Shown here: positions 6,786 to 61,770 of the stretch, one piece after another | Position numbering within the stretch: position 1 is the first letter of the stretch | Layout of the letters: each line of letters begins with the position of its first letter | From: Nephrocerus scutellatus | Taxonomy: Eukaryota; Arthropoda; Insecta; Diptera; Pipunculidae | DNA: 64,000 nt | Reading direction: 5' to 3' | Assembly: GCA_947095585.1 (NCBI GenBank) | Contig: OX352762.1 | Span: 51,105,843 to 51,169,842, forward strand | The notes under the pieces: model-generated | Database searches by the model: none | What the model saw: the letters and a program-made list of their open reading frames with translations, nothing else | What the model was told of the DNA's origin: nothing | Program-made: the position numbers and the translations under genes

Positions 6786-7254
6786 TAAATGTGCATTTAA
6801 TACACATGTGTATCTCCGATAGACAAAACTTTTTGTAAAAAATTTATTTGGAGACCCTGGGTCCCGGGCCCCAAAATTTAAAATTTTATATACATGTATC
6901 TCCGATGAAAAACACTTTTTGTAAAAAATTTTGAGACCCGGGCCCCAGGGTCATTGGGCCCCAAAATTTTTTTAAAAAAAAATTAACCCGATTTTTTCTA
7001 AATTTTATATACGTGTGTATCTCCGATGGGCAGCACTTTTTGCAAAAAAATTTTTTTAAAAAACAACCCGATTTTTTAAAAATTTTGTATCTCCGATGGA
7101 CAAAATTTTTTGTAAAGTTTTTGGAGTGTGGCCCTAGGTCCGAGGGGTGCCCATATAAATTTTTTAAAAATTAGCTCGATTTTCTTCAAATTTTAATACA
7201 TACCCATCTCCTATTAGAGAATTTACATGAAAAATTTTATTTTTATGGGTTGTT
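6786..7254 (+). repeat. MSR copy, 5' truncated
   Basis: Three to four AT/GC-patterned monomers with TGTATCTCCGATGGACAAA and GGGCCCC cores end in the MSR 3' module: TTAGAGAATTTACATGAAAA at about 7215-7234, then TTTTTATGGGTTGTTTTT. The 5' module (AAATTCTCTATATTAAC) is missing. Confidence 0.8.
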
Positions 7255-7255
7255 T

Positions 7256-7905
7256 TTAATTTTTAAATTGTATTTACAAATACGATTACTTCGAGAAATG
7301 CTCTCGGATACATTTTTTTGCCAAATGTAATGTCAAAAATCAATTCAATTTCCTACAAATCTGTGGCACAATATTTATACATTCCGTCAACAAGAGCGAG
7401 ATAGTGAGGTTTGTGTTACTACTACTACGTATAAGAAGTTCCTGCAGCAACAGTGCAACAATATTGCACGTGGAATGGATGCAGTCTTACCACTTCACTC
7501 CAGTGCATAATCTGCTTCAAACCGACTTGCCCAGAAGGACCTAATTTTGTGAGTGGACAGATGAAAATGGTGGTGAAATTGGACACATGACCTTAAATCT
7601 GTTTGAGGAAGATTATGCACTGGAGTGAAGTGGTAAGAGTACATCCGTTCCAAGTGTAATTTTGTTGCACTGTTCTGCAGGAACCCTAAGACGTCATGCA
7701 ACTCTTCTTATACTAGTAGCAGTAACACAACACGCACTATCTCGCTCTTTTTGATAGATTGATATATATTATATATTATTAATATTATTATTATGGATTT
7801 GTAGGAAATTGCATAGGCTCTAATGTAACATTTGTGAAAAATATGTATCCAAGAGCATTTCTCGAAATAATCGTGTTAATAAATACAATTTTAATATTTT
7901 TTTAT
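7256..7905. repeat. Long inverted-repeat (foldback) element, about 650 bp
   Basis: The left arm (about 7258-7560) is the reverse complement of the right arm (about 7580-7905) with scattered mismatches and indels. Paired blocks include CGAGAAATGCTC, AATTTCCTACAAATC, AGAGCGAGATAGTG and ATTATGCACTGGAGTGAAG(TGG). Only a short spacer separates the arms. No transposase is encoded; the reverse-strand frame at 7495-7701 lies in the palindrome. Best read as a non-autonomous foldback DNA element; superfamily unknown. Confidence 0.82.
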
Positions 7906-8204
7906 TTTAACGATCTTTATATCGGTATGGCTTAATAATGTAAAAAATGTACATTGTTTAATCTTAAAAATGTATTCTTCTTTCAAAAAGACCAATAGTA
8001 ACCTAATAGCCGAAAGCGTTCAAGAGTTATGGGGTGTGAAGTAATGTAAGGTCAAAAACACGTTTTTGTTCATTTACAAACTTCTAACCGGTACGATTGT
8101 TTCACGAAATTAACCAAGGAATCACCCCATTAAGTATTTTCAACCTTAACGAATACACCCTGTATAATAATATACATGTATAATATTGTTACGAAATTTA
8201 GGTT
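7906..8204. other. Unassigned AT-rich stretch
   Basis: No coding signal. ACACCCTGTATAATA near 8154 resembles ends of some small DNA transposons, but no partner end was found. Confidence 0.3.
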
Positions 8205-8510
8205 TTCGAGTTCGTAAAGGATTTTTCAAATAAAACACAACACAAGTTTATAAATAAGAACTTTAATTTATCATAAGCAAAAATAACAACAGTTCACAAT
8301 TTAATATTGGACAACTTTTTAATGCATACAAAAACACTTTAAAAATACTTGAACTATTATTTACAATGTGGCACCTCTATTAGCTTGCAATTATCTTTTT
8401 AACTTGACTGGTTGAATTCCAAACTACGGATAAATTTCTGCGGCAAATGCCGTACCATTTATAGTAAATCATTAGCTTTGCGTTCTTGTCTTTTCTCTTT
8501 ATTTTTAAAT
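8205..8510 (-). mobile_element. Possible isolated or truncated LTR
   Basis: Read on the reverse strand the stretch ends with TTTACGAACTC...ATTTCGTAACA, an ending common in BEL and gypsy LTRs of insects, with TTTATTT-type tracts upstream. No second copy or coding region adjoins it, so this is a weak call. Confidence 0.3.
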
Positions 8511-8516
8511 TCTCTA

Positions 8517-9303
8517 TAAAAAAAAACAACCCATAAAAATTTAAATTTTACATGTAAATTCGCTAAACGGAGATATATATGTGTGCAAAGTTTGACTCGG
8601 TTAATTTGGAAAAAATTAATATAAAAAGTTTTGTCCATTGGAGATACACATGTGTTTAAAATTTGAAGAAATCGGGCTGATTTTAAAAAATTTGTATGGG
8701 CCCCTCAGGCCTCAGGGGCCGTTCACTCCAAAAAATTACAGAAAGTTTTGTATATCGGAGATACAGATGGGTTTAAAATTCGAAGAAAATTGGACGTAGT
8801 CTCTAAGCCTCAGGGCCCGTTTACTCCAAAAAAGTTTTGTCCATCGGAGATACACATATGTATAAAATTTTACAAAAATCAGGCTAATTAAAAAAAAAAT
8901 ATTGGCGCCCCTCGTTCCTCAGGCCCCGTTCACTACAAAAACTTTACAAAAAGTTTTGTCCATCGGAGATACACATGTGATTAAAATTTGAAGAAAACTG
9001 GGTTATTTTTTTAAAAAATTTGTATGGGGCCACATGACCTCGGGGCCCGGGGTCTTCAAAATTTTAACAAAAAGTGTTGTCCCTCGGAGATACACATGTG
9101 TATAAAATTTGAAATCAAAATTTTAACAAAAAGTGTTGTCCCTCGGAGATACACATGTGTATAAAATTTGAAATTTTTTATATTGGCCGCGGTGCCCGGG
9201 GTCTCCAAAATTTTTACAAAAAATGCTATCTATTCGGAGACTCTCAAGTATATAAAATTTGAAGAAAATCGGGTTAATTTTTTTTGAAAAATTTTGTATG
9301 TGG
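8517..9303 (-). repeat. MSR copy interrupted by hAT-1 (left part)
   Basis: Reverse-oriented MSR. It opens with AACAACCCATAAAAATTTAA and ACATGTAAATTCGCTAAA, then several monomers with CATCGGAGATACACATGTG. Inside it a 59-bp block (9057-9115) is repeated exactly at 9116-9174. The copy resumes at 16,898 beyond hAT-1. Confidence 0.88.
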
Positions 9304-9311
9304 CCTCAAGA
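9304..9311. repeat. hAT-1 left target site duplication
   Basis: CCTCAAGA immediately before the CAGGGTTGG terminus, identical to 16,890-16,897. Confidence 0.95.
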
Positions 9312-10048: not shown

Positions 10049-11702
10049 TCAAAAATTAGATATCAATCTCCAAATTAAAAAAACTTTAAATATGTTAATT
10101 AAAAAATCATGGGCAAAAATCTTACAGAAATTTACCGGCTTGGTAAAAATATCGGCAACCATTTTATTCGTTGCTAAATATTGTAAATCCAATTTAATTT
10201 CACCTTCAGCTTCTTGGTTTAAGTGCTCCTGGATGAAATATTTGCGTACATCTATGTGTTTTGTACGAGCATGATAGCTTTTATTTTTCGCGAGATGTAG
10301 TGCTCCTTGGTTGTCATAATATAAAGTGATGATCTTCGTTGCATCTGGAAACAATTCACACTCGAAATGTTTTAGCCAGAGCGCTTCTTGTATTGCAGCA
10401 ACCATGGACATAAATTCTGCCTCTGTCGAAGACAATGCAATAGTTGGTTGACGCCTTGTTGTCCATGAGACAGCTCCTCCTTGAACACGAAATACATATC
10501 CTGTGGTTGATCGTCGCTTGTCAGGATCAACGGCCAAATCAGCATCACAAAATCCGATGAGGTCTTCATTTTTCTCAGGATAAAAGGTCAGCTTGTATTC
10601 GACTGTACCCTTAAGATATCGCAGCACCCTTTTAACTGCTGCCCAATGTACACTGCCATATTTTTTGTTGTACCTGCTGAGTGCACTGACAGCATAACAG
10701 ATATCGGGACGACTAATTTGAGCAGCATACATTATGCATCCGATCGCTTCCTGATATGGGATTCGGCGCATGTCTCGTTGCTCAACTTCAGACTTTGGAG
10801 AGAATTCTTCCGATAATTTTTGGTTTGGGTCCATTGGAGTGTTAGCTGGATTGCAATTCTCCATATTAAACCGCTTGAGAACATTTGTAATATAGTGGCT
10901 TTGATCAATCGATATAGAGCCTGAGAAATTTCGAGAAATGTTTATACCAAGTATTGATTTAGTTTCGCCTAAATCCTTCATCTTAAAATGAGTTGACAAT
11001 TCAGTCTTCAATTTCGTGCACATCGTTGCATTTGTTGAAAAAATCATTATATCATCGACCCAGACAGCTAATATGATTTTGTTCTGTAGTGAATGCTTGT
11101 AGTAAATACAGTGGTCACTTGATGATCGCTTGTATTTCATTTGCCCCACCAGTACATCATTCAGCTTATCGTTCCAAACACGACTTGACTGTTTCAAACC
11201 ATATAGTGCTCGCTTAAGACGACAAACCCTCCCCTTTGGCTGCCATTGCCAACAGAAATCGAATTGATGCATAACGTGCTACAGGTGAGTAAGTTTCGTC
11301 GTAGTCAATGCATCTGACTTGACAGTACCCTTTGACAACAAGTCGAGCTTTATACCGGTCGATAGTGCCTATACCATTTCGTTTTATTTTGTAGACCCAT
11401 TTAGTGTCTATCGCCTTTCTTCCATCAGGTAGCTGGCACAAGTCCCAAGTATTATTGGACTTCAAAGAGTTTAGTTCGGTATTCATTGCTGCTTCCCATT
11501 TCTCGCTTTCGTCACAGTGTCTAGCTTCTTGAAAGCATTTGGGTTCGCTGATGTCTCTGGTAGCTGCTGGCAACATCGCATATAGACTGAGAGTATTGCG
11601 TACATCTTCAGTGTCTTTCGAAATTGAGCTTTCTTCCACTACGATCGGGCATGGAACAACTAAAAAGTTCACTGTTAGCAACGTCGAAATCAGTTTCAGC
11701 AA
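10049..11702 (-). pseudogene. copia-1 reverse transcriptase and RNase H
   Basis: Two overlapping reverse frames. From 11,702: ETYSPVARYASIRFLLAMAA, the start of the RVT_2 copia RT domain. From 11,272: CRLKRALYGLKQSSRVWN, then the catalytic box AVWVDDIMIFS (about 11,060), HFKMKDLGETKSILGI, and DICYAVSALSRY. RNase H follows: VSWTTRRQPTIALSSTEAEF (about 10,430-10,490), YDNQGALHLAKN and HIDVRKYFI, ending KMVADIFTKPV near 10,120. Family motifs are all present. The domain is split by one frameshift near 11,240 and was probably continuous with integrase upstream. Confidence 0.92.
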
Positions 11703-13078: not shown

Positions 13079-14446
13079 TCAAAAACCGCGCTTTGCCATC
13101 TGACTCACCGACATAAGATTTGCACAAATGTCTGGTATATGAAGAACGTCTTTCACAGTAACATCGCCATTTTGTGACATATAATTTGTGCCAATAGACA
13201 TTTTTATATCACCTGCACATTTCACATTTAGATGAGAATTGTCGCCCACAATTATTTCTTTCTTCGAAGGCTTTCGGACATTTGTCAAACTAGCATCGCT
13301 CATTGTGATGTGAGCAGAAGCACCTGAGTCTATATACCACTCATGAGAAGGTTTTGCTTTAGCCACAAATGAACACAAAAAAAAGTTTTTCAGATTTTCT
13401 TCTTTTGTTTGGACACTTGTTGGCGAAATGGCCCAATTCATCACAAACATAACACTTCACAGATTTGCCGATTTTCTGTCTTGAATATTGCCGCTTATTT
13501 TTCTGGTTATTGTATGACTTTCTCGCATTATCCGACTTAGGTGCAACCTCTTGTAGTAGGCGATTTTGGACAAAATCAGATGTTAACTCTGGCTTCGAAT
13601 TTTCAATGGCCATTACCATTGGACGATATTCGACTGGTAAATTTGCCAACAATAGCGCTGCCACAACATCATCTCCGATTTCCAGACCAGCTTTCTTGAC
13701 TTTGGTCGACATAAGTTTAATTTTATGAACATAGTCTTCCATCGATGCACAATCAGCTTGTTTGAGTCCAACCATTTGTTTAAGCAGATCTACACGCCGC
13801 CCAATTCCATTGTCCTCAAAAGCACCACAAACTGCATCCCACGCTTCTTTGGCCGTTGTACACTTTTCGGTGAACGTATATAGAGCTGATGAAAGTAATA
13901 TTTTTAACATTTGGATCGCCAAAAAAATTTTTCTTCATCCGTCTCTGTTCCATTGAAGCACTTCCAGTGTCCTTTTGTCGCAAGATACGCCTTTGCTTCA
14001 ACCTTCCACTCGTCGTAATTGCTCCTACCTTCCAATTTCTTAGGTTTTCCCATTTTATGCAAGCGAAGGGCACATAACCTGTTGTAATTTCAGTGGAGGG
14101 AAAACACGTTTTATCAGCTTGAAGGTTAAATTGCAAGAGAGGAAGTAATTTATTTTTCATATTAATATACTAGATAAAATGACAGATGTACGCCCAATTC
14201 CATTGTCCTCAAAAGCACCACAAACTGCATCCCACGCTTCTTTGGCCGTTGTACACTTTTCGGTGAACGTATATAGAGCTGATGAAAGTAATATTTTTAA
14301 CATTTGGATCGCCAAAAAATTTTTTCTTCATCCGTCTCTGTTCCATTGAAGCACTTCCAGTGTCCTTTTGTCGCAAGATACGCCTTTGCTTCAACCTTCC
14401 ACTCGTCGTAATTGCTCCTACCTTCCAATTTCTTAGGTTTTCCCAT
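13079..14446 (-). pseudogene. copia-1 gag and protease
   Basis: The gag start codon is at 14,446 (repeated at 14,053 by the duplication) and begins MGKPKKLEGRSNYDEWK. Gag helices follow (AKEAWDAVCGAFEDNGIGRR, LPVEYRPMVMAIENS), then a CCHC knuckle CYVCDELGHFANKC (about 13,415-13,455). Protease reads WYIDSGASAHITMSDASL (about 13,295-13,345). A frameshift in an A/T run near 13,920 separates the first about 45 codons from the rest, and another lies near 13,370. The gag start resembles UBN2-type copia gag. Confidence 0.88.
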
Positions 14447-14583
14447 TTTATGCAAGCGAAGGGCACATAACCTGTTGTAATTTCAGTGGAGGGAAAACAC
14501 GTTTTATCAGCTTGAAGGTTAAATTGCAAGAGAGGAAGTAATTTATTTTTCATATTAATATACTAGATAAAATGACAGATGTA
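13798..14583. repeat. 393-bp tandem duplication inside copia-1
   Basis: 13,798-14,190 and 14,191-14,583 are direct copies; I saw one difference, in the A/T homopolymer at about 13,920 versus 14,313. The unit runs from inside gag through the gag start codon and primer site into part of the 5' LTR. The junction is GATGTA/CGCCC, sharing a C. It probably arose by slippage or replication error after or during insertion. Confidence 0.95.
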
Positions 14584-14673
14584 CTCTTGGCATGAAAGAG
14601 ACAACAGTATAGTTCATTATATCATTATAATTCTAACAGGGTGTTGGAACACATATATAATTTAATTACAACA
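14473..14673 (-). repeat. copia-1 5' LTR
   Basis: 201 bp with TGTTG...CAACA ends, next to the primer binding site. Partial copy of its 3' portion is repeated at 14,080-14,190. Confidence 0.92.
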
Positions 14674-16880: not shown

Positions 16881-16889
16881 CCAACCCTG

Positions 16890-16897
16890 CCTCAAGA
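16890..16897. repeat. hAT-1 right target site duplication
   Basis: CCTCAAGA, identical to 9304-9311. Confidence 0.95.
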
Positions 16898-17015
16898 CCC
16901 CGGCGCCCAGGGGCTCCAAAATTTTTACAAAACGTGTTGTCCATTGGAGATATACATGTACACATATAAAATTTAAAGAATGTCGGGTAAATTTTGTAAA
17001 ATATTTGTATGGGAA
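16898..17015 (-). repeat. MSR copy interrupted by hAT-1 (right part)
   Basis: Continues the MSR monomer broken at 9303: CCCCGGCGCCCAGGGGC, then TTGTCCATTGGAGATATACA. Homology fades after about 17,015. Confidence 0.8.
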
Positions 17016-17334
17016 CCCCGACCCCAAGGTCGTGCCTTGTTCCATATGCCGTCGTTACTCACTGCTTGCTGTAGAAGCTTGTTTGAGAGGCCTTCGGTTC
17101 TCCCTCAGTGCCTTGTTTCATAGGCATTCGGTACTGCGCTCCCAATGCGCACCTACTCGCTATTACCCACCTACTCGCTAGTATTTTATGTTGCTTTAAT
17201 GAAAACCAATTCCAAGAAGGCAAGAAGCTAAAAATACTGATAAAAGTACTCTTTTCAATTGCTCGCTCATCTACTTAGAAAAAATGCGATGACAACTGAT
17301 GCCGTTGTATGAGATACAAGTGTTACTATTTTCA
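17016..17334. other. Unassigned stretch with short internal repeats
   Basis: GTGCCTTGTTYCATA occurs twice (about 17,032 and 17,110) and CACCTACTCGCTA twice (about 17,149 and 17,167). It could be part of an LTR, but no ends or second copy were found. Confidence 0.3.
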
Positions 17335-17782
17335 CTTTTTAAATTCTCTATATTAACTTCACTTGCCCGTGGCTGGCTGGCCAAATTTTGCACGCATGTA
17401 TATCTCCCATGACAACACTTTCTATTAAAATTTGAGGCCCCTCGGGCCGCGGGGTCGGGGGGCTCTCATACAAATATTTTACAAAATTTACCCGATTTTC
17501 TTTGAATTTTGTACACATGTGTGTCTTTCATGGAAAACACTTTTTGTAAAAATTTGGAGCGATCGGCCCCTTGGGGACCCCAATATACAATTTTTAAATA
17601 TCGCTATATCGCATCAGATCACGGAAAAGTCTGAGCTCTGTGCTTTGTGAGCAGCGCTGTTCGCTGCCGCTGCGTCATTTGGTGAATGATTTTGACACAA
17701 AACGAGCACGCAGTGTGTGTGTGTGTATCCCCGATTAGAGAATTTACAAGAAAAATTTTAATTTTTATGGGTTGTTTTTTTA
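17335..17782 (+). repeat. MSR copy with both end modules
   Basis: Starts in a T run with AAATTCTCTATATTAACTTC and CCCGTGGCTGGCTGG; two monomer-like segments; a GC-rich inner part near 17,640-17,670; a GTGTGTGTGTGT tract at 17,718; ends ATTAGAGAATTTACAAG then TTTTTATGGGTTGTTTTTTT. Confidence 0.85.
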
Positions 17783-18357: not shown

Positions 18358-19470
18358 AAAAAACAACCCATAAAAATTTAAATTTTTCATGTAAATTCTC
18401 TAATTGCGGCTTTGAGGCACAACCACTTCCAGATTTTTATAAAATATTTTTTTATCTGAGTGTACAAAATTTGAAGAAAATCGGGTTAATTTTTAAAAAA
18501 AATTATATGGGCGCCCCACAGCCCTAGGGTCCGATCACTTTAAATTTTTATAAAAAGTGTTGCCACTGGAGATAGACATGTGTGTAAAGTTTCAATAAAA
18601 TCGGGCTTTCAGAAGTGGAATAATAAGTGGGGTTGTGGGGCCCTATACAAATTAAAAAAAAAATAATCCGATTTTCTTCAAAATTTATATACATGTGTAT
18701 CTCCGATAGACAAAACTTTTTGTAAAAGTTTTGGAGACCCCGGGCCCCGGGGTCGTGAGGCACCATACACATTTTTTTAAAAAATTAATCCGATTTTCTT
18801 CAAGTCTTGTTGAACACATGTGTTTATCTCCGATGGACAAAAGTTTTTTCAAATTTTTTGGAGTGATCGGGCACTGAGACCCGCCCGAGTGGTGCCTATT
18901 AGCTCGATTTCCTTCAAATCAAGATAATATGTATTTCCTATTAGGGAATTTACATGAAAAATTTTAATTTTTAGGGGTTGGTTTTATAAAAAAATTGTGA
19001 ATCGGAGATAGACATGTGTATGGGTACTTATTTTTATAAAATTTGTATGGGTGTCCCCTGACCCCGTGCCGATCAGGATCACTTTCAAATTTTTACAAAA
19101 AGTGTTGTCCATCGGAGATACACATGCGTATAAAATATTAAGAAAATCGGGTATTTTCTTTATAAAATTTGTATTGGTGCCCCGACCTCTGGGCCCGATC
19201 CCTTCCAAATTTGTACAAAAAGTGTTTTCCATCGTAGATCCACATGCGTATAAAATTTGAAGAAAATCGGGTAAATTTTGTAAAATATTTGTATGGGAGC
19301 CCCTCGACCCAAGCCCCGATGGGCCCAATTTTTAATAGAAAGAAAAAGAAAGTATTGGGAGATACAGATGTGTGCAAAGTTTGAATAAAATCGGGCTTAA
19401 GAAAGTGGGTTAAAAATGTATCACAAGATTCTACCCACCAGCCAGCCAGCCAAGGGTACGCGAAGAATAA
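18358..19470. repeat. MSR cluster with mixed orientation
   Basis: A reverse-oriented 3' module (AACAACCCATAAAAATTTAA, 18,363) is followed by monomers in both orientations; a forward 3' module at 18,933-18,983 (TTAGGGAATTTACATGAAAA); then reverse monomers to ACCCACCAGCCAGCCAGCC near 19,434, the reversed 5' module. At least two or three copies have recombined. It abuts BEL-2 near 19,470. Confidence 0.82.
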
Positions 19471-22321: not shown

Positions 22322-22369
22322 GTGGTTTTATTTTTGTCGTACACTAATGGTGGTTTTTTTGCTATTCCG

Positions 22370-22870
22370 ATTCCGAACATATAGAGAATTTAAAATTTCA
22401 TGTAAATTCTCCAATAACCAAAAGTATACTGAATTCCACTATAAATGAAAAACAAATGCGAAGCACTGCAACGCAACAACAAAGAAATCACAATCGTAAA
22501 GCAAGCAGCGCTGCTTAAAGCGCATCAGCTCATCAGCGCACACAGAACACAGTCATTATAGTAAGAAATGATCTGACGCCGGGGAAAAAAATTTGTTTGC
22601 GAGCGCCCCGACCCGCGACCCGATTACACTCAAAATTTAATAGAAAGTATTGTCATCGGTAATATACATGTGTGCAAAATTTCAATAAAATCGGCCTAAA
22701 GGAAGTGTGTGAAAATTTGAAGATTCTGCCCACGAGCCAGCCAGCGAAGTTAATATATAGAATTTAAAAATTAAAATTTTTCTTGTAAATTCTCTAATCG
22801 GAGATACACAGGTAGGCAGTTTGGGCAAAATTGGGTTAATTTAAAAAAAAAAATTATGGTAGTTAAGTAA
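22370..22870 (-). repeat. MSR copy (copy A), with partial second copy
   Basis: ATTTAAAATTTCATGTAAATT and CCAATAACCAAAAGTATACT open it (shared with the copy in hAT-2 at 29.9 kb). It runs through CATCGGTAATATACATGTG and AGCCAGCCAGCGAAGTTAAT to a terminal AATATATAGAATTTAAAAA, then a partial MSR end (TTCTTGTAAATTCTCTAATC). Confidence 0.82.
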
Positions 22871-23500: not shown

Positions 23501-23504
23501 CTTA

Positions 23505-24962: not shown

Positions 24963-25010
24963 GTGGTTTTATTTTTGTCGTACACTAATGGTGGTTTTTT
25001 TGCTATTCCG

Positions 25011-25511
25011 ATTCCGAACATATAGAGAATTTAAAATTTCATGTAAATTCTCCAATAACCAAAAGTATACTGAATTCCACTATAAATGAAAAACAAATGC
25101 GAAGCACTGCAACGCAACAACAAAGAAATCACAATCGTAAAGCAAGCAGCGCTGCTTAAAGCGCATCAGCTCATCAGCGCACACAGAACACAGTCATTAT
25201 AGTAAGAAATGATCTGACGCCGGGGAAAAAAATTTGTTTGCGAGCGCCCCGACCCGCGACCCGATTACACTCAAAATTTAATAGAAAGTATTGTCATCGG
25301 TAATATACATGTGTGCAAAATTTCAATAAAATCGGCCTAAAGGAAGTGTGTGAAAATTTGAAGATTCTGCCCACGAGCCAGCCAGCGAAGTTAATATATA
25401 GAATTTAAAAATTAAAATTTTTCTTGTAAATTCTCTAATCGGAGATACACAGGTAGGCAGTTTGGGCAAAATTGGGTTAATTTAAAAAAAAAAATTATGG
25501 TAGTTAAGTAA
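25011..25511 (-). repeat. MSR copy (copy B)
   Basis: Duplicate of 22,370-22,870. Confidence 0.82.
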
Positions 25512-26141: not shown

Positions 26142-26145
26142 CTTA

Positions 26146-27870: not shown

Positions 27871-28645
27871 TAATTTTAAATTCTATATATTAACTTTGCG
27901 TGCCCGTGTGTTTGCTTGCTTCTTTGTTTATTTGTCGTGGAATCTTGCGATCACTTTCCGATGACAACACTTTCTATTAAAATTAGGGGCCGAGGGGCTC
28001 CCATACAAATTTAGCCCGTTTTTTTTTAAATTTTATATACATGTGTATCTCTGATGGACAACACTTTTTGTAAAAATTTTGGAGACCCCCGCTCCCGGGG
28101 TCGTGAGGCTCCATACAAATGTTTTAAAAAAATTAACCCGATTTTCTTAAAATTTTATACAGATGTGTATATCCGATGGACAAAACTTATTGTACAAATC
28201 TTGGAGACCCCGGGCCCCGAGGTCGTGGTGCCCCATACAAATTATTTAAAAAAATTAACCAGATTTTCTTAAATTTTAAACATATGTGTATCTCCGCTGG
28301 ACAAAACTTTTTGTACATTTTTTTTAAGTTATTGGTTCCTCATACATTTTTTTTAAAAAAAAAACCCGGTTTTTTTAAAAATTTTAACACATGTTTATCT
28401 CGCATGACAACACTTACTATTGAAAGTTGGAGGTGATCGGGCCCCAAGTTCGGGGGTTCCCATACAAATTTTTCACGCATATGTATCTCCGGTGACAACA
28501 GTTTTTGTAAACATTTTGAAGTAAAGGGGCTCTAATATTAATTTTTTCCAAATTAACCCGGTTCAAACTTTGCACAAATATGTATCTCATTTTAGAGAAT
28601 TTACATGAAAAATTTAAATTTTTATGGGTTGGTTTTTTTATTTGC
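27871..28645 (+). repeat. MSR copy, apparently complete
   Basis: Starts AAATTCTCTATATTAACTTT with GCGTGCCCGTG, contains at least three monomers spaced about 120 bp (TGTGTATCT-type boxes at about 28,042, 28,163 and 28,285), and ends TTAGAGAATTTACATGAAAA then TTTATGGGTTGGTTTTTTT. Confidence 0.88.
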
Positions 28646-28984: not shown

Positions 28985-29890
28985 CTTTCCTGGAACCTGG
29001 ACCTGGAATTCATGAATTTTACGAAGTTGCGAAATGTGAAGTAAAAGAAAAAATTAAATCGCATAAAGACACCCGTTTATGCGGAAAATTTAGCCTCATA
29101 TTAGATGAATGGACAAGCTTACGAAACCGGTGCTACCTCGACATAAATATTCATTTTTATAAAGAATACGTAAATTTAGGACTGGTTAAAATTAAAGGAA
29201 GTTGCTCTGCTGATAAAACAGTAGAACTTGTTAAGAAAAAGATATCTGATCTTGGCATACATTTATCTGATGTAGTAGCAGCAACTACCGATGGTGCTGC
29301 CGTCATGATCAAATTTGGAAGATTATCTGGATATATCCACCAACTATGCTATAATCACGGCATTCATTTAGCTGTTATTGGTGTAATTTATAAGAAAGAT
29401 GAAGATATCAATCCCAGTCCTAAACATTACTCGATGACAATAACTTCCAAATTTTTTCAAATATTTTAAGCGCACTGAAGCCGGTTTAACTAGCTGTTGA
29501 AGCGTTAGGAAGACTCGATGCAAATTTGGTTACAGCTGATGCGAATTTAAAATTTGTATTTGATTCTTTGCGCGAGAATAATGAATAGAGAACTGTTGGA
29601 ACTTTTGTCTATTCGCATTAAAGAACGAAGAAACTGAGATCTTGTGTCATTAGCAAAATACCTTCAAACACTTGATTTACAATCTACTGCTACAGCTTAA
29701 TTGCCTACATCTTCAAAATCTGCAATAATTCGTTATGGTCAACTGACTATCAGTAGATTATTTCGTAAAGAGGTAGACTACGTTGAAATTGAAAACGCAG
29801 ACCAAAGAGAATATTTTACCGGGGAAGATAGTCAAACATTGCATTCGAATATAACTGAAAGATTGGCTATAAATAAAGCACTTCAAAATA
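28985..29890 (+). pseudogene. hAT-2 transposase, main part
   Basis: The forward frame from about 28,990 reads EFYEVAKCEVKEKIKSHKD, CGKFSLILDEWTSLRNRCYL (first catalytic Asp in LDEW), VVAATTDGAAVMIKFG (second Asp) and CYNHGIHLAVIGVIY (the Cys-His box), with a stop near 29,468. A second frame, 29,701-29,890, adds the linker region SAIIRYGQLTISRLFRKE. This is a different hAT family from hAT-1, shown by unrelated termini and little shared protein sequence. It has stops and is non-functional. Confidence 0.85.
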
Positions 29891-29892
29891 GA

Positions 29893-30335
29893 CAAAAAAA
29901 ACACATAAAAATTAAAATTGTTCATGTTAATTATCTAATAACCAAAACTATACTGAATTCCACTATAAATACTGATATACAAAAACATATACGAAGCACT
30001 GAAACCCAAAAACAAAACAGCCCCAATCGTAAAGCAAGCAGCGCTGCCCACAGCTCACAACGTACAGCGCACAACGCACACAGAACACAGTCATTAAAGT
30101 ATAAAATGATCTGATGCCGGGAAAAAAAATTTATATGTGAGACCCCCGACCCCGCGGCCCGATTACAATCAAATTTTAATAGAAAGAATTGTCACCGGAA
30201 ATATAAATGTGTGCAAAATTTCAATAAAATCGGGCTTTAGGAAGTGTTAACAATTGATCACAAGATTCTGCCCACCAGCAAGCAAGCCAGCCAGCGAGAT
30301 GGGCACGCGAAGTTAATAGAGAGAACTTAAAAATG
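29893..30335 (-). repeat. MSR copy inside hAT-2
   Basis: Begins AAACACATAAAAATTAAAA, TTAATTATCTAATAACCAAA; inner part CGTAAAGCAAGCAGCGCTGC; ends GCACGCGAAGTTAATAGAGAG, AACTTAAAAA. Same subfamily as 22,370. It splits the hAT-2 transposase. Confidence 0.85.
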
Positions 30336-30567: not shown

Positions 30568-31434
30568 TTTTTTAAATTCTCTATATTAACTTCGCGTGCA
30601 CGTGGCTGGCTGGCTGGGTGGCTGGCTGGTCAGATTTTCTGATCAATTTTTCACCAACTTCCCATAGCCCGATTTTATTGAAATTGCACACATGTATATT
30701 TCTGGTGACAATACTTTCTATTAAAATTTGAGGCCCCCGGACCTCGCTCCCATACAAATATTTTACAAAATCAACGCGATTTTTTTTTAAATTTTATACA
30801 AATGTGTATCTCCGATGGAAAACACTTTTTGTAAAAATTTTGAAGAGATCGGGCCCCTGGGTCGGGGGGGCACCCATACAAATTTTATGAAAAAAGTTTC
30901 CGATTTTCTTCAAATTTTATACGCATGTGTATCTCCGATGGACAAAACTTTTTGTATAATTTTTGAAGCGATCGGGCCCCGGGATCGGGGGGCTCCCATA
31001 CAATTTTTTTTTTAATTATCAATTTTTAACGAACTTCCTAAAGCCCGATTTTCCTAAAATGTGTATTTCCGGTGACAATAATTTCTTTTAAAATTTGGAA
31101 GGGCCCCGGGTTCGTGGAGCTCGCATACAAATTTAAAATAAAAATTAACCGATTTTTTTTAAATTTTACACACATGTGTATACCCAACAAACAATACTTT
31201 TTCTAAAATTTGATAGTGATCAGGCCCCGGGTTCAGCCGCAAGGGACTTATAAATTTTTTTTAAATATCATAAAGTGGCATCAGATATCGTCGTGCTTTA
31301 ATGACTGTGTGCGGTGTGTGCTGCGCAGTCGGCTGCGCTGCTTGGTTTTGGTGGTGGAGAGAGAGATCACGCACAAATGAACCCAGGAAATGAAACGAGA
31401 CATAAATGTTTTATGCTTAATTCAACTTACTTAC

Positions 31435-35785: not shown

Positions 35786-36152
35786 CTTACTTATTTACTG
35801 AATTGTATTTTTATTGATGTCGTTTTTTGTTGTCGATATCAACTTACAAATAGAACAACAAGTTTTCACAATATTCTGTTATTTGGCGTTTTCATAAATT
35901 AGTTCAGAGCAGTCAAAGAGTTCTCAAGAAAAATGCTCGTGTTTCTTATTTGCTCAGAGTATGAGCGTGCTCTAAGTGCTCAGAATAAAATGATCTGAGC
36001 ATTTTCAAATTTGACATCTGATGTCAAATGTCTCTTTCGATTATTTTCTCCTACAATAAAAAAAATTACCCAGGATCGAGGGGCTCTCATATCAATTTCT
36101 GCGATTAGAGAATTTAGATGAAAAATTTTAATTTTTATGGGTTGTTTTTTTT

Positions 36153-43830: not shown

Positions 43831-44330
43831 AGCCGATCATGGAGCCGCACCCATACAAATTTTGTAAAAAAAAAAAGTACTCGATTTTCTTCAAATTTTA
43901 TACGCATGTGTATCTCCGATGAACAACACTTTCTGTATAAAAATTTGGAAGTAATCCAGGTCACAGGTCGGGGGTATTTTTTTTTTTATGAAAAAAGTAC
44001 CCGATTTTCTTCAAATTTTATACGCATGTGTATCTACAAAGGACAACACTTTTTGTAAAAAAATTTAAGCGATCGGGCTGGGCTTCCGGGGTCGTGGGGC
44101 ACCCAATTTACAATTTTTACCAGATTTTCTTCAAATTTTATATGCATGTGTATCTCACTGGACGGACAACACTTTTTGTAAAAATTTTGAAGTGAAATGG
44201 CCCCGGGGTCGGGGGAGCTCTCTAACAAACATTTTAAAAAATTTCGATTTTATTCAAACTGCACATTGTGTGTTCCCGATTAGAGAATTTACACGAACAT
44301 TTTTAATTTTTATGGGTTGTATTATTTTTT
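43831..44330 (+). repeat. MSR copy, 5' truncated
   Basis: Three monomers with ATACGCATGTGTATCTCCGA boxes near 43,900, 44,020 and 44,140, spaced about 120 bp, and a 3' module TTAGAGAATTTACACGAACA then TTTTTATGGGTTGTATTATT. Confidence 0.88.
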
Positions 44331-44339
44331 TATAATGTA

Positions 44340-48394: not shown

Positions 48395-49155
48395 TTTTCT
48401 TCTTTTTTAAATTCTCTATATTAACTTCACTTGCCCGTGGGTCGTCGGTCGTCTGTCGTGGATTCTTGCGATCAATTTTTAACCCACTTCCCATGGCCCG
48501 ATTTTATTGAAATTTTGCACACATGTGTATTTCCGGAGACAACACTTTCTATTAAATTTTAAGGCCCCTCGGGCTGCGGGGTCACGGGTCCCGGGTTCGG
48601 CCGCAAGGCCCTTATACATTTTTTAAATATCGATACTGGCATCAGATATTCGTCGCTCTTTATGGACTGTCTGCGGTGTGTGCTGCGCAGTCGGCTGCGC
48701 TGCATGGTTTTGGTGGTGGAGAGAGAGAGAGAAATCTTAGCTCACGCACAAATGAACCCAGCAAATGAAACGAGACATACATGTTTTATGCTTACTTCAA
48801 CTTACATTTTTATTTACTGAATTGTATTTTTATTGATGTCGTGTTTTTTGTTGTCGATATCAACATACAGATAGAACAACAAGTTTTCACAATATTCTGT
48901 CATTTGGCGTTTTCATAAATTAGTTCAGAGCAGTCAAAGAGTTCTCAAGATAAATGTTCGTGCTTCTTATTTGCTCAGAGTATGAGCGTCTGATCTGATC
49001 TGAGCATTTTCAATTTTAACATCTGATGTCAAATGTCTGTTTCGATGATTTTCTCCTACAATAAAAAAAAAATGGCCCGGGATCGAGGGGCTCCCATATC
49101 AATTTCTACGATTAGAGAATTTAGATGAAAAATGTTAATTTTTATGGGTTGTTTT
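48395..49155 (+). repeat. MSR copy with long inner block; unoccupied copia-2 site
   Basis: AAATTCTCTATATTAACTTC start; CTGCGCAGTCGGCTGCGCTG block near 48,683; GAGAGAGAGAGAGA tract at 48,719; the CTTCAACTTACATTTT site at 48,796 matching the copia-2 target; TTAGAGAATTTAGATGAAAA and TATGGGTTGTTTTTTT end. Closely similar to 30,568-36,152 without copia-2 and, reversed, to 52,600-53,165. Confidence 0.9.
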
Positions 49156-49159
49156 TTTT

Positions 49160-49550
49160 AAAACACAAATGTGTATTACTGATTTTTTTGGAGAGGTGCC
49201 CATGTTAATTTTTTAAAAATTAGCCCGATTTCATTCAAATTTTAAACACATGTGTATCACTGATGGACAAACTTTTTATAAATTTTTTGGAGTGGCCCTG
49301 AGACCCGAGTGGTGCACATGTAAACAATTTAAAAAGTAGCTCGATTTTCTTCAAATTTTAAACACTTGTGTATCACTGATGGACAAAAATTTTCCTAAAT
49401 TTGTTGGAGTGATCGGGCCCTGAGACCCGAGTGGTGCCCATGTAAATTTTTTAAAAATTAGCCCGAATTTCTTCAAATTTTAAACACATATGTATATCCT
49501 ATTAGAGAATTTACATGAAAAATTTCAATTTTTATGGGTTGTTTTTTTGT
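49160..49550 (+). repeat. MSR copy, 5' truncated, three short monomers
   Basis: Monomers with AACACATGTGTATCACTGAT at about 49,245 and related boxes near 49,365 and 49,485; ends ATTAGAGAATTTACATGAAA and TTTATGGGTTGTTTTTTT. Directly follows the preceding MSR. Confidence 0.88.
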
Positions 49551-52372: not shown

Positions 52373-52599
52373 GTATTTAATCAACAACTGAGAGTGCGTT
52401 GAGATATACGCAAGCTATAAAATTTCCGGAAATAATAATAGATTTTTTGAAATATTTTAAATATGTATACGTTTTTTCTTATTTAATATTAATTAAAATT
52501 AAGTTCTTTTCTTTTATTTCGGGTTGTGTTTTGTGTCCATTAGTGTTAATTGTTGTGTTGCTTTTTTATTTCTGGAGTTTGAAGAAAATTTTATTGGCA
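52373..52599. other. AT-rich stretch, no feature
   Basis: A hydrophobic low-complexity frame (52,399-52,740) runs through it and into an MSR; no gene evidence. Confidence 0.4.
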
Positions 52600-53165
52600 A
52601 AAAAACAACCCATAAAAATTAAAATTTTTCAACTAAATTCTCTAATCGCAGAAATTGATATGGGAGCCCCTCGATCCTGGGCCGTTTTTTTTTATTGTAG
52701 GAGAAAAGCATCGAAACAGACATTTGACATCGGATGTTAAAATTGAAAATGCTCAGATCATTTTATTCTGAGCACTTAGAGCACGCTCATACTCTGAGCA
52801 AATAAGAAACACGAACATTTATCTTGAGAACTCTTTGACTGCTCTGAACTAATTTATGAAAACGCGAAATGACAGAATATTGCGAAAACTTGTTGTTCTA
52901 TCTGTAAGTTGATATCGACAACAAAAAACGACATCAATAAAAATAAAATTCAGTAAATAAAAATGTAAGTTGAAGTAAGCATAAAATTTAAGCATCGTAA
53001 GCATTTATGTCTCGTTTCATTTGCTGGGTTCATTTGTGCGTGAGCTAAGATTTCTCTCTCTCTCTACCACCAAAACCATGCAGCGCAGCCGACTGCGCAG
53101 CACACACCGCACACAGTCCATAAAGGGCGACGAATATCTGATGCCAGTATAGATATTTAAAAAAT
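52600..53165 (-). repeat. MSR copy, reverse; inverted partner of 48.6-49.15 kb
   Basis: AACAACCCATAAAAATTAAA start (3' module reversed), ATTTATCTTGAGAACTCTTT, TAAGTTGATATCGACAACAA, then GCGCAGCCGACTGCGCAGCA. Very similar, in reverse complement, to 48,600-49,155. Confidence 0.9.
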
Positions 53166-53462
53166 GTATAAGGGCCTTGCGGCCTTGCTTGGGCTGCGGG
53201 GTCGGGTGCCTTCCATACAAAAATTTTAAAAAATTTACCCGATTTTCTTCAAATTTTACACACATGTGTATACCCAATAAACAATACTTTTTCCAATAAA
53301 ATGATCTGAGCATTTTCAATTTTAACATCTGATGTCAAATGTCTGTTTCGATGATTTTCTCCTACAATAAAAAAAAATGGCCCAGGATCGAGGGGCTCCC
53401 ATATCAATTTCTGCGATTAGAGAATTTAGATGAAAAATTTTTATGGGTTGTTTTTTTATTCG
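53166..53462 (+). repeat. Recombined MSR pieces, forward
   Basis: One monomer fragment (CCCGATTTTCTTCAAATTTT, ACACACATGTGTATACCCAA) joins near 53,296 to the inner block ATAAAATGATCTGAGCATTT and runs to the 3' module TTAGAGAATTTAGATGAAAA, TTTATGGGTTGTTTTTTT. Confidence 0.85.
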
Positions 53463-56515: not shown

Positions 56516-59086
56516 GGGGGGTTTGGAGCGGAAGCACCCATGCCAAGTTAGATAGAAGTCTACTTCTCTATGGCTTCTACCGGTCCATAATTCTATAGAT
56601 GGTATTAATCTATGGGTCCATCTACTCTTACTTGACTGGACCCATCTTCTTTGCCAGCTTGGCTCTTGTGAGATACCCGCGGCGCCTATAAATCACCTGA
56701 CGGACCTTGGCCAGTAAGTCGATTGGGAGCATACCAGCAACCACAAACGCTGCATCGCTCGAGATGGTTCTAAAGCCACAGATCACTCTTAGAGCACTCA
56801 ATCGCCTGATAGATGACATCTTTCGCCAGTAGCTAACCTTATCCATTGCGTCAGCCCAAATTGGCACTCGGTATAAAAGGATGGATGAGACAATATTAGC
56901 CAATAGCTTTCTTCTTGTTTGCCTTGCTCCTCCAGTGTTAGGCATAATTCGAGACAGTGCTGAACATACAGTCTATGCTTTATTGCTGGCAGCCTTTATA
57001 TTTTCTTTGAATGAGAGTTTCGTATCAATTACCATTCCCAGGTATCTAATTGATGGCTTAGATATAATCGAACAATTACCAACTACAAAGGTTATTGTCT
57101 CTCTTATTTTCCTACTGGATATTAGTAGAGCTTCAATTTTATGTTCTGCCAACTGTAATCCGATTGACGTCAGCCAATCCCGGATAGTCCTAATTGTTGC
57201 ATTACATATTGCAGTTATCTCCTCTTTGTGTTTTGCCACAACGATGACTGCGATGTCATCTGCAAAACCGACAATCTCTGCCTCTTCAGGTATTTGGAGC
57301 CTAAATATGCCATCATACATTATATTCCATAATAATGGGCCTAGCACAGACCCCTGTGGAACTCCTCCGGTAACCTTATATTCCTTCAAGCCATACCACA
57401 GTTCCCTGTGGTATAGCAGAATTCTGTTACTGAAGTAATCTGCCACCATCCTCAGAATGTACGATGGGACCTCTCTCCGACGTAGTTCATTGAACATACA
57501 ACTCCATTTGGTTGAATTAAAAGCATTCTTGATATCGAGGGTGACTATGGTGCAATACTTTTTAGTTCCTCCCTTCCACATTTTCCCATCTATCGCTTTT
57601 TGTGCCAAATTTTTAACAAAATCAATGGCATCAATTGTTGAGCGTGCTTTGCGGAAGCCATATTGATGTTCTGCTAGGTCTCCTGATTGTACTCCGGCTT
57701 CCTGTAGCCTACCGCCGATAATTCTTTCTAAGATTTTGCCCGTTGTGTCGAGGGGACGGTATGAGGATGGTTCGTCTGGTGGTTTTTTACCTTTAGGGAA
57801 TAGGACAAGTCTTTGTTTTTTCCACTCCGCTGAGAACACCCCTTCTTTTATGCATGAGTCAAGCATGTTTGCAAACATATTTGAATAGTTCCTAATTGCG
57901 GATTTTAATGACACGTTAGGAATGTTATCTGGTCCTGGGGTCTTGTTATTGCCTACCTTTCTGGCAGCCTGGAGAACTTCATCGGCCATCACGGGCGGAA
58001 TTTCTTCATCGGGATTACCTATCCCTACATTAAAGTCGTGTTCTATTTGTTGCGGGAACAATACGTTTACAATACTATTCAGCATTATTGGGCACGAGGG
58101 GGATGTAAACGAGTTACCCTTAACTTTTGTCATTACCGTTCTGTACGGTCTACCCCAGGTGTCTTGTTCAACTTGTTGACACAGTTCCCTGAGGCATCTG
58201 CGTTTACTTGCCTTTATAGCCGTCCTAAGCTGTGATCGGACATTACAATAGTGCTGGCGCAGATCATCAATGTTCCTACGCCTCTATCTTTGGTATTGCC
58301 GTCTGGCCCGTAGGCACTTCCGACGCAGCTCCGCTATTACTTCATTCCTTCAGTAGGTAGATTTGCGTTGGCCGATTAATACTTTCCTCGGCATTGCTGA
58401 ATCACAAGCTCTTCTTAGCGAGGTCATGACTTTAGACACCTTTTCCGTCGCTGTCCCTGAGATACAGGTATCCTCCAACATGAAAAGGAACAATTTTTCA
58501 TCAAATGAATTCGCTTCCCAACCCACCGCTTTCTTTCTAAGTTTTTGATTTGGTCCCACACCACCTATTTCACACAGTATGGCTTGGTGGTCACTATGTG
58601 TGTATGATTCGCTGACTTCCCAAGTGTCTTCCTTGCTTAAGAGGCAGCTACTAACAAACGTTAAATCGATTATCGAGCTAGCGGACCCCCTACGGAAAGT
58701 CGGTATATTTCCATTGTTCACAGTCACAGTGTAATCTGCAACATAGCAAGTGCTTCCAAAAGTGCCTCCCCTCGAGCATCTGTTTTCCATTAAAGCTGTA
58801 AACTCTGCTAATGATGCACTTGGTTTTGCATAACAGCTATATATATGAATGCCATCGACCTTCGCTCTTATAAAACCTGATTCCAAATTCATTTCTCTTG
58901 GAAACAACGCTTACCACAGACCCATATGGCAGCGCTACCTGTAGCGTCGGTTGCAAATATGCTTTCATTGAGGTTTCTGTATGCTTCGCTGATAATAGCA
59001 ACATCTACCTTCAGTTCACGCACGGTTTGATGCAAAAGATCCTGTGCAGCTTCACAATGATTAAGATTCATTTGGATAATAATCAT
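56516..59086 (-). pseudogene. R1-type LINE ORF2: endonuclease and reverse transcriptase
   Basis: Start ATG at 59,086 overlaps the ORF1 stop (ATGA). Endonuclease: IIIQMNLNHCEAAQDLL, VAIISEAYRN, then after a frameshift near 58,895, SIIDLTFVSSCLLS and SYTHSDHQAILCEIG (about 58,555-58,620). RT: NNKTPGPDNIPNVSL, PKGKKPPDEPSSYRPLDTTG, EHQYGFRKARSTIDAI, TLDIKNAFNS, GGVPQGSVLGPLLWNIMYDG, VGFADDIAVIV (about 57,240-57,285). C-terminus ISSDAAFVVAGMLPIDLLA, then in a shifted frame SRWTHRLIPSIELWTGR and LTWHGCFR near 56,540. Stops at 58,350 and near 58,289. The end is cut by the LINE-B poly(A). Confidence 0.92.
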
Positions 59087-60286: not shown

Positions 60287-60329
60287 TCCTTTCTCTCCTT
60301 ACTCTCCTCCTCCTACTAAATTTGTTATC

Positions 60330-61335
60330 ATCTCTGTTGGGTTGGGTTCTCAAGATGACTCAGCCACTTGGATCGCCGATGATCGGCAACCAGTTTTTGC
60401 ATGCCCTTGGTTAGCTGAGTATCTTGAGGGTCAGCAGCGAGGGAAGCAGGATAGTTGGTCGCGACGTTCCGCAAGCCGGAGGGCTTCGGTGTAGCGGTGA
60501 TCCTGGTGGGAAAATCATCATTCAAGGTGACAAAGTCAGTTTCTTTTAATATGTCCACAATGCAGTTTCCACGGTTGTCCTCAGGAACCAAAGGGGGTGA
60601 TGGGCATTGAAGTCCCCCATCACAATTTTGTTTTCACCCTGGAGAAGGTGCAGTGGGGATATGGTTGATAACCATTTAATGTGCTGTTTACGGGGGGTAT
60701 GTAAACATTGGTGAGTAATAACTCGAAGTCTCCAGTGTTAACTGAAATACTCATTGTCTCAAGATGAGGAGCGGGGGCGGGTTGCTGGCAGATGTATTTG
60801 TATGATACATTCTGCTGAAGAATAAAAGCAGGTCCCCGCCTCTGTCGGATCTGTCGTGTCGAATGATTTGATAACCGTCAAAGGATGTCAATGAGCATGA
60901 GTTGGGAATTTTGGTCTCCTGCACGGCAAGAATTAAGATGTTATTGCGAAACATATAGTTGGTGATCTCTCTTAATTTGTTTCGCAGCCCATTACAGTTC
61001 CATTGAAGGATCTTAAAGAAATAACTGAATGGCCTGTGTGCTGACCGTGTTGAGTTTGTGGAGGGGGGTCGGTGCATCGTTAGTGCACAGGGGTGGTGTC
61101 GAAGATGGAATGTGGGGTGGGGGGTTGTTGTGATACTCCTTGGAAGCAGCATGTGCCAACGAAATTAATGTTATGATCGTTGCACTGTGTAGCCCTGAGC
61201 ATTGCCGCAGAAGACACCATTTGGCACAACTGTTGCAACGTACAGAGGCTTCACTTTTCCGGATAGGACAGTAACAGACCGAGCAGTACCAGATCCTGGG
61301 ACATGGGTTCGCCTCGATCCCGGCTCTTCTTAGTA
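60330..61335 (-). pseudogene. LINE-E N-terminus: degenerate 2A-like motif, zinc finger, endonuclease
   Basis: Reverse strand from 61,335: RRAGIEANPCP (about 61,297-61,330), resembling the RSGIEPNPGP 2A-like box of some LINEs with Gly changed to Cys; then CSVCYCPIRKSEASVRCNSC and AKWCLLRQCSGL, a PHD-like cysteine cluster (about 61,195-61,290). A proline-rich linker leads to FKILQWNCNGLRNKLREITN and ILILAVQETKI (about 60,920-61,030), the EN start. The EN end VPEDNRGNCIVDIL, FVTLNDDFPTRITATPKPSG lies at 60,480-60,591. The middle of EN is deleted, and a linker-like KLVADHRRSKWLSHLENP follows near 60,340. Confidence 0.8.
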
Positions 61336-61435
61336 GGATGTATATATTTTAATATCTTTTAATTTATATACCTTAATATATGTAGATATATTATAGGTAT
61401 ATACACTGGTTCGTTGGTTTATATTTTAATGTATT
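61325..61435. repeat. AT-rich repeat shared with 52,258-52,372
   Basis: ACCTTAATATATGTAGATAT and TTATAGGTATATACA blocks are shared; followed by a SINE-like tail (CAGCGCCAAATATTATTATT, 61,446). Confidence 0.78.
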
Positions 61436-61464
61436 TTTATGTAACAGCGCCAAATATTATTATT

Positions 61465-61515
61465 AGTTAGCTTGTAAATGAGCCGAAGAGTTCATGGCAT
61501 TGCCAATAATTCCAA
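61465..61515 (+). pseudogene. LINE-A endonuclease scrap
   Basis: AGCTTGTAAATGAGCC and GGCATTGCCAATAATTCC match the QLVNEPTRIPDIANHS region at 40,158-40,205. Confidence 0.65.
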
Positions 61516-61544
61516 CCTGGTTTTGTTCATTACTTATATTTTTC

Positions 61545-61770
61545 AATTCTCTATATTAACTACGCGTGCCCGGCTGGCTGGATGGTCAGATCTTGTGATC
61601 AATTTTTAACCCACTTCCCAAAGCCCGATTTTATTGAAATTTTGTGCACATGTATATTTCCGGTCGTAGGGCTCCCATACAAATTTTGTTCCCCGGCATC
61701 AGATCATTTCATAATATAATGACTGTGTTCTGTGTATGTTGAGCAGCGGTGCTTGCTTGGGGGGGGGATT
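61545..61770 (+). repeat. MSR copy, 3' truncated
   Basis: AATTCTCTATATTAACTACG, CCCGGCTGGCTGG, AACCCACTTCCCAAAGCCCG, GTGCACATGTATATTTCCGG, then GCATCAGATCATTTCATAAT; ends before a GGGGGGG tract at 61,760. Confidence 0.85.

What the first reader, a model, noticed from the sequence alone, without database searches (positions are those of the whole stretch)
6786..61770. MSR: an abundant repeat with inverted ends and internal 120-bp monomers, possibly a Helentron-like non-autonomous element
At least a dozen copies share one architecture. The 5' module is AAATTCTCTATATTAACTTC plus a GGCTGGCTGG tract. Next come one to several AT/GC-patterned monomers of about 120 bp. The 3' module is TTAGAGAATTTACATGAAAA, an AAAAATTTTAATTTTT palindrome, and GGGTTGTTTTTTT. 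AAATTCTCTA and TAGAGAATTT form short inverted subterminal repeats, and the T-rich ends often lie in T runs (17,335; 30,568; 48,395). Subterminal inverted repeats, an internal tandem array and a 3' palindrome are known for DINE-1/Helentron-associated elements. The family link is inference; no Helentron protein with these ends is in the window.
Basis: partly seen in the sequence, partly recalled or inferred. Interest (0 to 1): 0.75.

Follow-up and report, generated by a model that had tools for sequence, protein, structure and literature searches.

The report
Abundant fly rolling-circle transposon (HINE)
This is a very common, protein-less jumping DNA of a fly-like genome that looks and behaves like the known Helentron/DINE-1 type of rolling-circle transposon: a new family of a familiar kind, with some copies joined head to tail.

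Summary
The window holds 15 3' modules and 8 5' modules of one repeat, covering 12.7% of it. The 34-base 5' end with up to 2 mismatches occurs 10,883 times in the 613-Mb genome, reversed control 0. Anatomy: an 11-bp subterminal inverted repeat directly after a T-run; a short microsatellite of several types; AT/GC monomers; the second subterminal repeat; an AT palindrome; GGGTTG plus T's. No protein of its own was found.
Unoccupied paralogs of one insertion show entry into a T5 run without visible target duplication; a second site agrees more loosely. In 25 measured copies (of 30) flanks outside the T's are not duplicated.
Not shown: the autonomous partner. Many Helitron Rep/helicase genes exist; none read carries both ends. 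New detail: 325 head-to-tail junctions against one 5'-to-5' site; the few read look more like serial insertion at copy ends than fresh concatemers. A new family of a known kind.

The parts
17336..17781 (+). complete copy, subfamily A: T5 17336-17340, 5' subterminal repeat core 17341-17350, GGCT tract from 17371, 3' repeat core from 17736, palindrome 17751-17766, GGGTTGTTTTTTT 17769-17781
48403..49158 (+). complete copy, subfamily B (GTCG microsatellite, AGATG 3' end)
27874..28643 (+). complete copy, subfamily C, with a 122-bp monomer array
22382..22810 (-). head-to-tail joint: 3' module of one copy (22765-22810) runs via AATTTTT straight into the 5' module of a second copy, which runs into a third 5' fragment at 22382-22391
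25023..25451 (-). same joint in an exact duplicate 2,641 bp away
29887..30333 (-). copy with 5' module at 30309-30333 and 3' module at 29894-29939
30569..31430 (+). 5' module, GGCT tract and 123-bp monomers; no 3' module seen
6795..7262 (+). monomers and 3' module
8520..9311 (-). monomers and 3' module
16889..17031 (-). monomer fragment
18358..19465 (.). composite: minus-strand GGCT tract and monomers (19451-19031), plus-strand 3' module 18930-18988, minus-strand 3' module 18358-18407
35791..36151 (+). 3' half, subfamily B
43846..44332 (+). monomers and 3' module
49191..49548 (+). 122-bp monomer array and 3' module
52599..53170 (-). 3' part with an AGTTG/B-like 3' end
53188..53458 (+). subfamily B 3' part, palindrome shortened
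61539..61664 (+). 5' module with GGCT tract

Best explanation
MSR is a family of non-autonomous rolling-circle transposons of the Helentron type (a HINE; works like DINE-1). Inferred mechanism: a Rep-helicase supplied in trans nicks at the T-flanked 5' end (subterminal repeat TAAATTCTCTA), one strand is copied and displaced through the interior, replication ends after the 3' subterminal repeat, the AT hairpin and GGGTTG(T)n, and the strand is joined into a host T-run without target duplication. Shown here: the anatomy, the T-run target, no visible duplication, no own coding frame in the window copies, high identity among the copies compared, and head-to-tail joints. Not shown: the enzyme and the intermediate.
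For: 5' end 10,883 times, control 0. Subterminal repeat 11 bp in the consensus ends; its 10-bp core a perfect pair in 28 of 30 copies, which were however chosen for recognisable ends. Microsatellite after the 5' module, linked to subfamily: GTCG in 11 of 12 B copies, GGCT in 10 of 14 A copies. 3' palindrome after the 3' repeat in A, B and C copies, with single exceptions (L043, L066). L041 site: empty CATTTTTATTAATG, filled CATTTTT|element|ATAATG, 12 empty alleles aligned. T-runs of 5 or more at both ends in 25 of 25 copies measured, 30 considered. Median pairwise identity 96.8% (A) and 98.4% (B), 12 copies each, last 380 and 700 bp. Orientation: 325 head-to-tail joints against one 5'-to-5' site. 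The same feature list is printed for DINE-1/HINE.
Against: No autonomous element with both ends was found, though an MSR 3' module does lie in the same orientation about 1 kb beyond one Rep-helicase relic (C1:42.34 Mb) without a 5' end in the 1.5 kb read upstream. T-runs on both sides mean that a short T-only duplication cannot be excluded. The partial inverted repeat beside the 5' repeat of Drosophila DINE-1 is absent (longest exact complement 5 bp). The 3' hairpin is all A/T and weak (-2.2 kcal/mol; mononucleotide shuffles mean -1.07, s.d. 0.94). The second empty site is loose and the window copy's paralog unusable. The pattern that supplied most copies itself contained five T's, so the 5' T-run count is biased for those; the 6 counted copies from the DNA search also show 5 or 6. 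In joints with a non-T base, 14 of 31 have only two T's before the 5' end, so T5 is not required.
Confidence: 0.88

Rival explanations
1. A TIR cut-and-paste MITE whose inverted repeats are subterminal and whose target duplication is a short T-run (for example TT), hidden in the T tracts.
For: Inverted repeats at both ends; T's on both sides of every copy measured; DINE-1 itself was once filed this way.
Against: The 3' repeat lies 35 nt inside the end and the 5' one directly after the T's, unlike a TIR element; microsatellite and 3' palindrome unexplained; no TSD beyond T's; no transposase with these ends seen in what was read.
Confidence: 0.07
2. The head-to-tail arrays are rolling-circle concatemers (read-through past the 3' end), not separate insertions. 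(Compatible with the best explanation; a rival only on how arrays arise.)
For: 325 direct joints against one 5'-to-5' site; a coarse expectation for random T-run targeting is about 11; the commonest joint, T7 (35 of 69 pure-T joints among the 100 listed), equals one 3' T tract.
Against: In the two pairs compared, neighbours are no more alike than random copies: 97.5% against medians of 97.3-97.5% (A pair in L133, which has a 5-base spacer between T-runs) and 98.8% against 98.6-98.9% (B pair in L132, itself in a 7-kb tandem repeat). Two joints link different subfamilies (L133, judged from 41 bases; window 22746-22810). Insertion into a T-run also forces head-to-tail order. 3'-to-3' joints were not counted.
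Confidence: 0.3
3. Not one transposon family but satellite monomers dispersed by recombination.
For: Monomer stretches without ends occur (for example 16889-17031).
Against: Fixed ends next to unrelated flanks, and an unoccupied site, show discrete insertion.
Confidence: 0.03

Closest known systems
HINE, non-autonomous Helentrons (mite, Culex, Drosophila; PMC4067079: passages and sections 6 and 8 read)
   Same: 12-15-bp subterminal repeats 2-4 nt from the 5' and about 38-60 nt from the 3' end, 3' palindrome, micro- or tandem repeats inside, T-rich target, variable T's, no target modification
   Different: MSR repeat is 11 bp, of another sequence, not itself palindromic, and 35 nt from the 3' end; no Helentron partner identified here
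DINE-1/INE-1 of Drosophila (PMC2374699: passages and first part of section 6 read)
   Same: subterminal repeats, microsatellite then species-specific central repeats, 3' stem-loop, TT/T-rich insertion, hundreds to thousands of copies per genome
   Different: 13-bp repeats of ATACCC/TATACC/TACCC types there, TAAATTCTCTA here; GTCY microsatellite there, GGCT/GTCG/TTTGTGG here; partial inverted repeat beside the 5' repeat absent here
Helitron2_Cv and Helitron3_Cv of the blowfly Calliphora vicina (PMC3630058: passages and sections 16 and 18 read)
   Same: DINE-1-like, 11-bp subterminal repeats (Helitron2_Cv), proto-microsatellite, 3' stem-loop, 395-750-bp consensus, 41 and 40 copies in 600 kb
Cg_HINE of the oyster (PMC7492417: passages read)
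   Same: 11-12-bp subterminal repeats, microsatellite, array of satellite-like monomers, 3' palindrome, TT/T-rich site without TSD
   Different: unrelated host and monomers (Cg170 there); inverted repeat beside the 5' repeat present there

Membership tests
HINE (non-autonomous Helentron) | subterminal inverted repeats near both ends | tested here: met
   11 bp in consensus ends; 10-bp core perfect in 28 of 30 copies chosen for recognisable ends
HINE (non-autonomous Helentron) | palindrome or stem-loop between the 3' repeat and the 3' end | tested here: met
   AAAAATTTTAATTTTT or AAAAATTTAAATTTTT in A, B and C copies; absent in L043 and L066; hairpin weak
HINE (non-autonomous Helentron) | insertion in T-rich/TT sites, variable T's at the ends | tested here: met
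   5' T's 5-10, 3' T's 5-16 in 25 measured of 30 copies
HINE (non-autonomous Helentron) | no target-site duplication | tested here: inconclusive
   none beyond T's in 25 copies and at one clean empty site; a T-only duplication cannot be excluded
HINE (non-autonomous Helentron) | ends shared with an autonomous Rep-helicase-endonuclease Helentron | tested here: inconclusive
   not found; Rep matches abundant; searches partial
HINE (non-autonomous Helentron) | single-stranded rolling-circle intermediate | not testable with these tools
   needs DNA from the animal
Drosophila DINE-1 in the strict sense | 13-bp subterminal repeat of the printed types | tested here: not met
   TAAATTCTCTA against the printed table
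Drosophila DINE-1 in the strict sense | partial inverted repeat beside the 5' subterminal repeat | tested here: not met
   longest exact complement of the 5' end in the next 65 nt of one typical 5' module is 5 bp
canonical Helitron | 5' TC, 3' CTRR, insertion between A and T | tested here: not met
   ends are T(n)AAATTC and GGGTTGT(n), in T-runs
TIR DNA transposon / MITE | terminal inverted repeats with fixed-length duplication of 2-9 bp | tested here: not met
   3' repeat 35 nt inside the end; no duplication beyond T's; a T-only duplication stays open

The most novel reading that the evidence does not exclude
The element seeds its own satellite-like arrays: copies enter or run through the T tract at the end of an existing copy, so that over 300 exact head-to-tail joints, with a single 5'-to-5' joint found, have been built, either by strong self-targeting or by rolling-circle read-through. 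It would show how Helentron-type elements start tandem arrays of whole units.
Probability: 0.3. Interest if true: 0.5.

Novelty: new member of a known kind. Interest (0 to 1): 0.35.

Why it matters
It puts a very abundant repeat of a large fly-like genome in its place: a HINE with at least three subfamilies, two of them mostly with their own microsatellite. The exact head-to-tail joints give a countable record of how such elements come to lie in tandem, which bears on the origin of satellite DNA from transposons. Otherwise it is the expected behaviour of a known class.

Tried and rejected
Autonomous partner, by several partial routes, none positive. (a) 30 Rep loci (about 3.5 kb each) scanned for MSR ends: 8 hold a motif, 6 of these were read and show MSR copies beside or inside Helitrons, never a pair of ends around Rep. 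(b) Four longer Rep stretches, L069-L072, 8-9 kb each: the MSR beside the 1,100-aa Rep-PIF1 ORF of L071 is a separate copy of about 360 bp that starts some 240 bp behind the stop. (c) Flanks of two relatives of that ORF: at C1:42.34 Mb an MSR 3' module lies in the same orientation about 1 kb beyond the end of homology, with monomer sequence before it, but no 5' end in the 1.5 kb read upstream; at C6:16.88 Mb a 5' end lies about 2.9 kb downstream. I take both for neighbouring copies, unproven. (d) 49 odd 5' ends, 20 read: MSR variants and SINE or LINE inserts. (e) 116 odd 3' ends, 15 read, three of them from one array: subfamilies; the one with a foreign interior (C4:97.07 Mb) was followed 3.6 kb upstream to an unrelated open frame. 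(f) A 7-kb array unit with joints (L132): segmental repeat with other transposons, no Rep recognised. (g) OTU family PF02338: 2 hits, 9 candidates scored. (h) Nine further 5' ends without a recognised 3' end carry 38 to 655 bp of MSR-like sequence.

Rows dropped: one search kept 30 copies with both ends within 1.5 kb; one search dropped 5 of these for a non-canonical 3' end. The expected number of random self-insertions (about 11) uses the T-run density of this one window (553 runs) and copies within 2 mismatches; local duplications inflate the observed 325 (several listed rows share one joint).

Species: not identified. H2B in L065 matches Histone H2B chains of the PDB over its full length; that it is fly-like is recalled knowledge. 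A protein look-up of a neighbouring open frame gave nothing. Viral contigs, exact 22-base 5' end: 0. Rfam: 0 in the window. End sequences in the paper library: 4 unrelated papers; Repbase, Dfam and supplements could not be searched, so I do not claim the family is unpublished.
Full report
What is there. The window (C2:51105843-51169842 of a 613-Mb, 9-contig genome) lies in repeat-dense DNA. The quoted motifs are all present. I count 15 3' modules and 8 5' modules, and a library of 30 complete copies covers 12.7% of the window, the reversed library 0. Tandem monomers of 120-123 bp are confirmed by TRF at four places.

Genome-wide. The 34-base 5' end with up to 2 mismatches occurs 10,883 times, nearly equally on both strands, and 0 times for the reversed pattern. 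A DNA search with the window copy scored 40 of 3,598 first-look candidates; most listed long matches are about 97% identical over 400 bp. Complete copies fall into subfamilies by the bases after the 3' repeat: A (ACAAG, about 430-540 bp), B (AGATG, about 850-960 bp), C (ACATG, about 350-1,150 bp). Median pairwise identity is 96.8% for 12 A copies (last 380 bp) and 98.4% for 12 B copies (last 700 bp), which suggests recent spread; these copies were picked by good matches, so older ones are under-represented. Microsatellite type follows subfamily in A and B: GTCG in 11 of 12 B, GGCT in 10 of 14 A; the 3 C copies have three different types.

Anatomy. T-run, AAATTCTCTATATTAACTTC(A/G)C..., CCCGTG, microsatellite, a conserved block, interior with monomers, then TTAGAGAATTTACAAG...ACATG or ...AGATG, AAAAATTTTAATTTTT, ATGGGTTG, T-run. 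The longest exact inverted match between the consensus ends is 11 bp, TAAATTCTCTA; 35 nt follow the 3' repeat. The DNA hairpin at the 3' palindrome is weak, -2.2 kcal/mol against a shuffle mean of -1.07, s.d. 0.94. None of the 18 open frames of 200 aa or more in the window overlaps an MSR stretch; of the 10 scanned, 7 have retroelement-type domains, one of them (798-1592) below its curated cut-off, and 3 have none.

Target. I joined the flanks of the L041 copy and searched the genome: of 40 hits scored (2,187 candidates), 38 are unoccupied copies of the same LINE and 2 are the flanks of the occupied site. Twelve empty alleles were read: CATTTTTATTAATG as consensus where the occupied allele has CATTTTT, the element and ATAATG. 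The element thus sits in a T5 run; 5 T's precede and 8 end it, so about 8 are added; one T of the right flank is missing in the occupied allele. A second site (L063) has four weak paralogs (73-77%) with T7 at the joint, and its right flank does not align well. The paralog of the window copy (C2:50.04 Mb) differs too much at the joint to be used. Over 25 copies the 5' T-run is 5 in 20 and 6 to 10 in 5, the 3' run is 5 to 16, and the base after the 3' T-run is A in 19 of 25. Shared flank letters outside the T's are near chance: 1-mers 9 (8.6 expected), 2-mers 1 (0.3), 3-mers 1 (0.2), 4-mers 0. A TSD made only of T's cannot be excluded.

Head-to-tail joints. GGGTTG and T's run into AAATTCTCTATATTAACTTC at 325 places (144 + 181; gap up to 14), reversed control 0. 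Of the 100 listed, 69 are pure T, most often T7 (35) or T6 (16); of the 31 others, 14 have just two T's before the 5' end, in line with the TT rule printed for DINE-1. Two 5' ends face to face, with a slightly different pattern, occur at one place; 3'-to-3' joints were not counted. Random targeting of T-runs would give roughly 11, a coarse figure. Strand-specific T-run targeting and rolling-circle read-through both predict this orientation. The few arrays that I read (L132, L133, L134 and the window at 22.4-22.8 kb) lean towards serial insertion: in two pairs, neighbours are as alike as random copies, and two joints link different subfamilies. That is too few to decide.

Partner. PF14214 gives 151 matches in the genome (150 of 622 candidates scored), many with long open frames, and one clade has a 1,100-aa Rep-PIF1 frame. 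In the Rep loci read (30 of about 3.5 kb, 4 of 8-9 kb, and the flanks of two more) none has both MSR ends around Rep. Where MSR ends stand near Rep genes, I take them for neighbouring or nested copies, as expected at this density; one same-orientation 3' module about 1 kb beyond a Rep-helicase relic is the only hint the other way.

Comparison. The feature list printed for HINE and DINE-1 (PMC4067079, PMC2374699) matches on subterminal repeats, microsatellite, central repeats, 3' palindrome, T-rich target, variable T's and no visible target modification; the 13-bp Drosophila repeat and the partial 5' inverted repeat are not met.

Verdict. A new family of non-autonomous Helentron-type elements (HINE), ordinary in mechanism, notable for abundance and for exact head-to-tail joints.

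Noticed in passing
L072 and L027 (C2:66.22 Mb): Tandem array, unit 5,637 bp, of a Helitron with a CTAGT-like end plus adjoining MSR monomers and an MSR 3' end in the units seen. May be read-through into an MSR or later tandem duplication.
   Followed up: partly
L022:3263-3330 and L132 (minus-strand reading, about 3843-3960): The 11 bp TAGAGAATTTA, equal to the MSR subterminal repeat, directly precedes the same Helitron-like start (TTTGTATAT...TTGTGCCTAACTAG) in two loci with otherwise different flanks.
   Followed up: no
C4:62.507-62.532 Mb; also C3:76.5-76.65 Mb and C2:38.52-38.58 Mb: Clustered Rep-domain matches, evenly spaced at about 8.2 kb on C4, suggest tandem arrays of Helitrons.
   Followed up: no
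L099, L101, L103: The first 25 bases of MSR are followed within a few to 15 bases by a tRNA-like SINE start (GGGCGCCGTGGCTCAGTGG) in 3 of 20 odd 5' ends read. LINE-like sequence follows in L106 and L115.
   Followed up: no
window 21801-23600 and 24442-26241: An exact direct duplication (1,800 bp compared, 100% identical; offset 2,641) carrying the MSR head-to-tail joint.
   Followed up: partly
window 13798-14584: 393-bp tandem repeat, 2 copies, 99% alike.
   Followed up: no
window 10049-11278(-), 32753-33958(-), 36697-37626(-), 40984-41805(+), 53614-54234(+), 56973-58283(-): Open frames with RVT_2, Baculo_F (env-like), RVT_1 and endonuclease domains: a repeat-dense region.
   Followed up: partly
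L131:1644-3014 (+): 457-aa open frame, in a region with three MSR 3' ends 12-14 kb apart, has no relative at E<=0.001 in the protein search.
   Followed up: partly
L064 and L065: An MSR copy lies within about 1-1.5 kb of an H2B gene in two neighbouring loci; H2B reads complete in L065.
   Followed up: no
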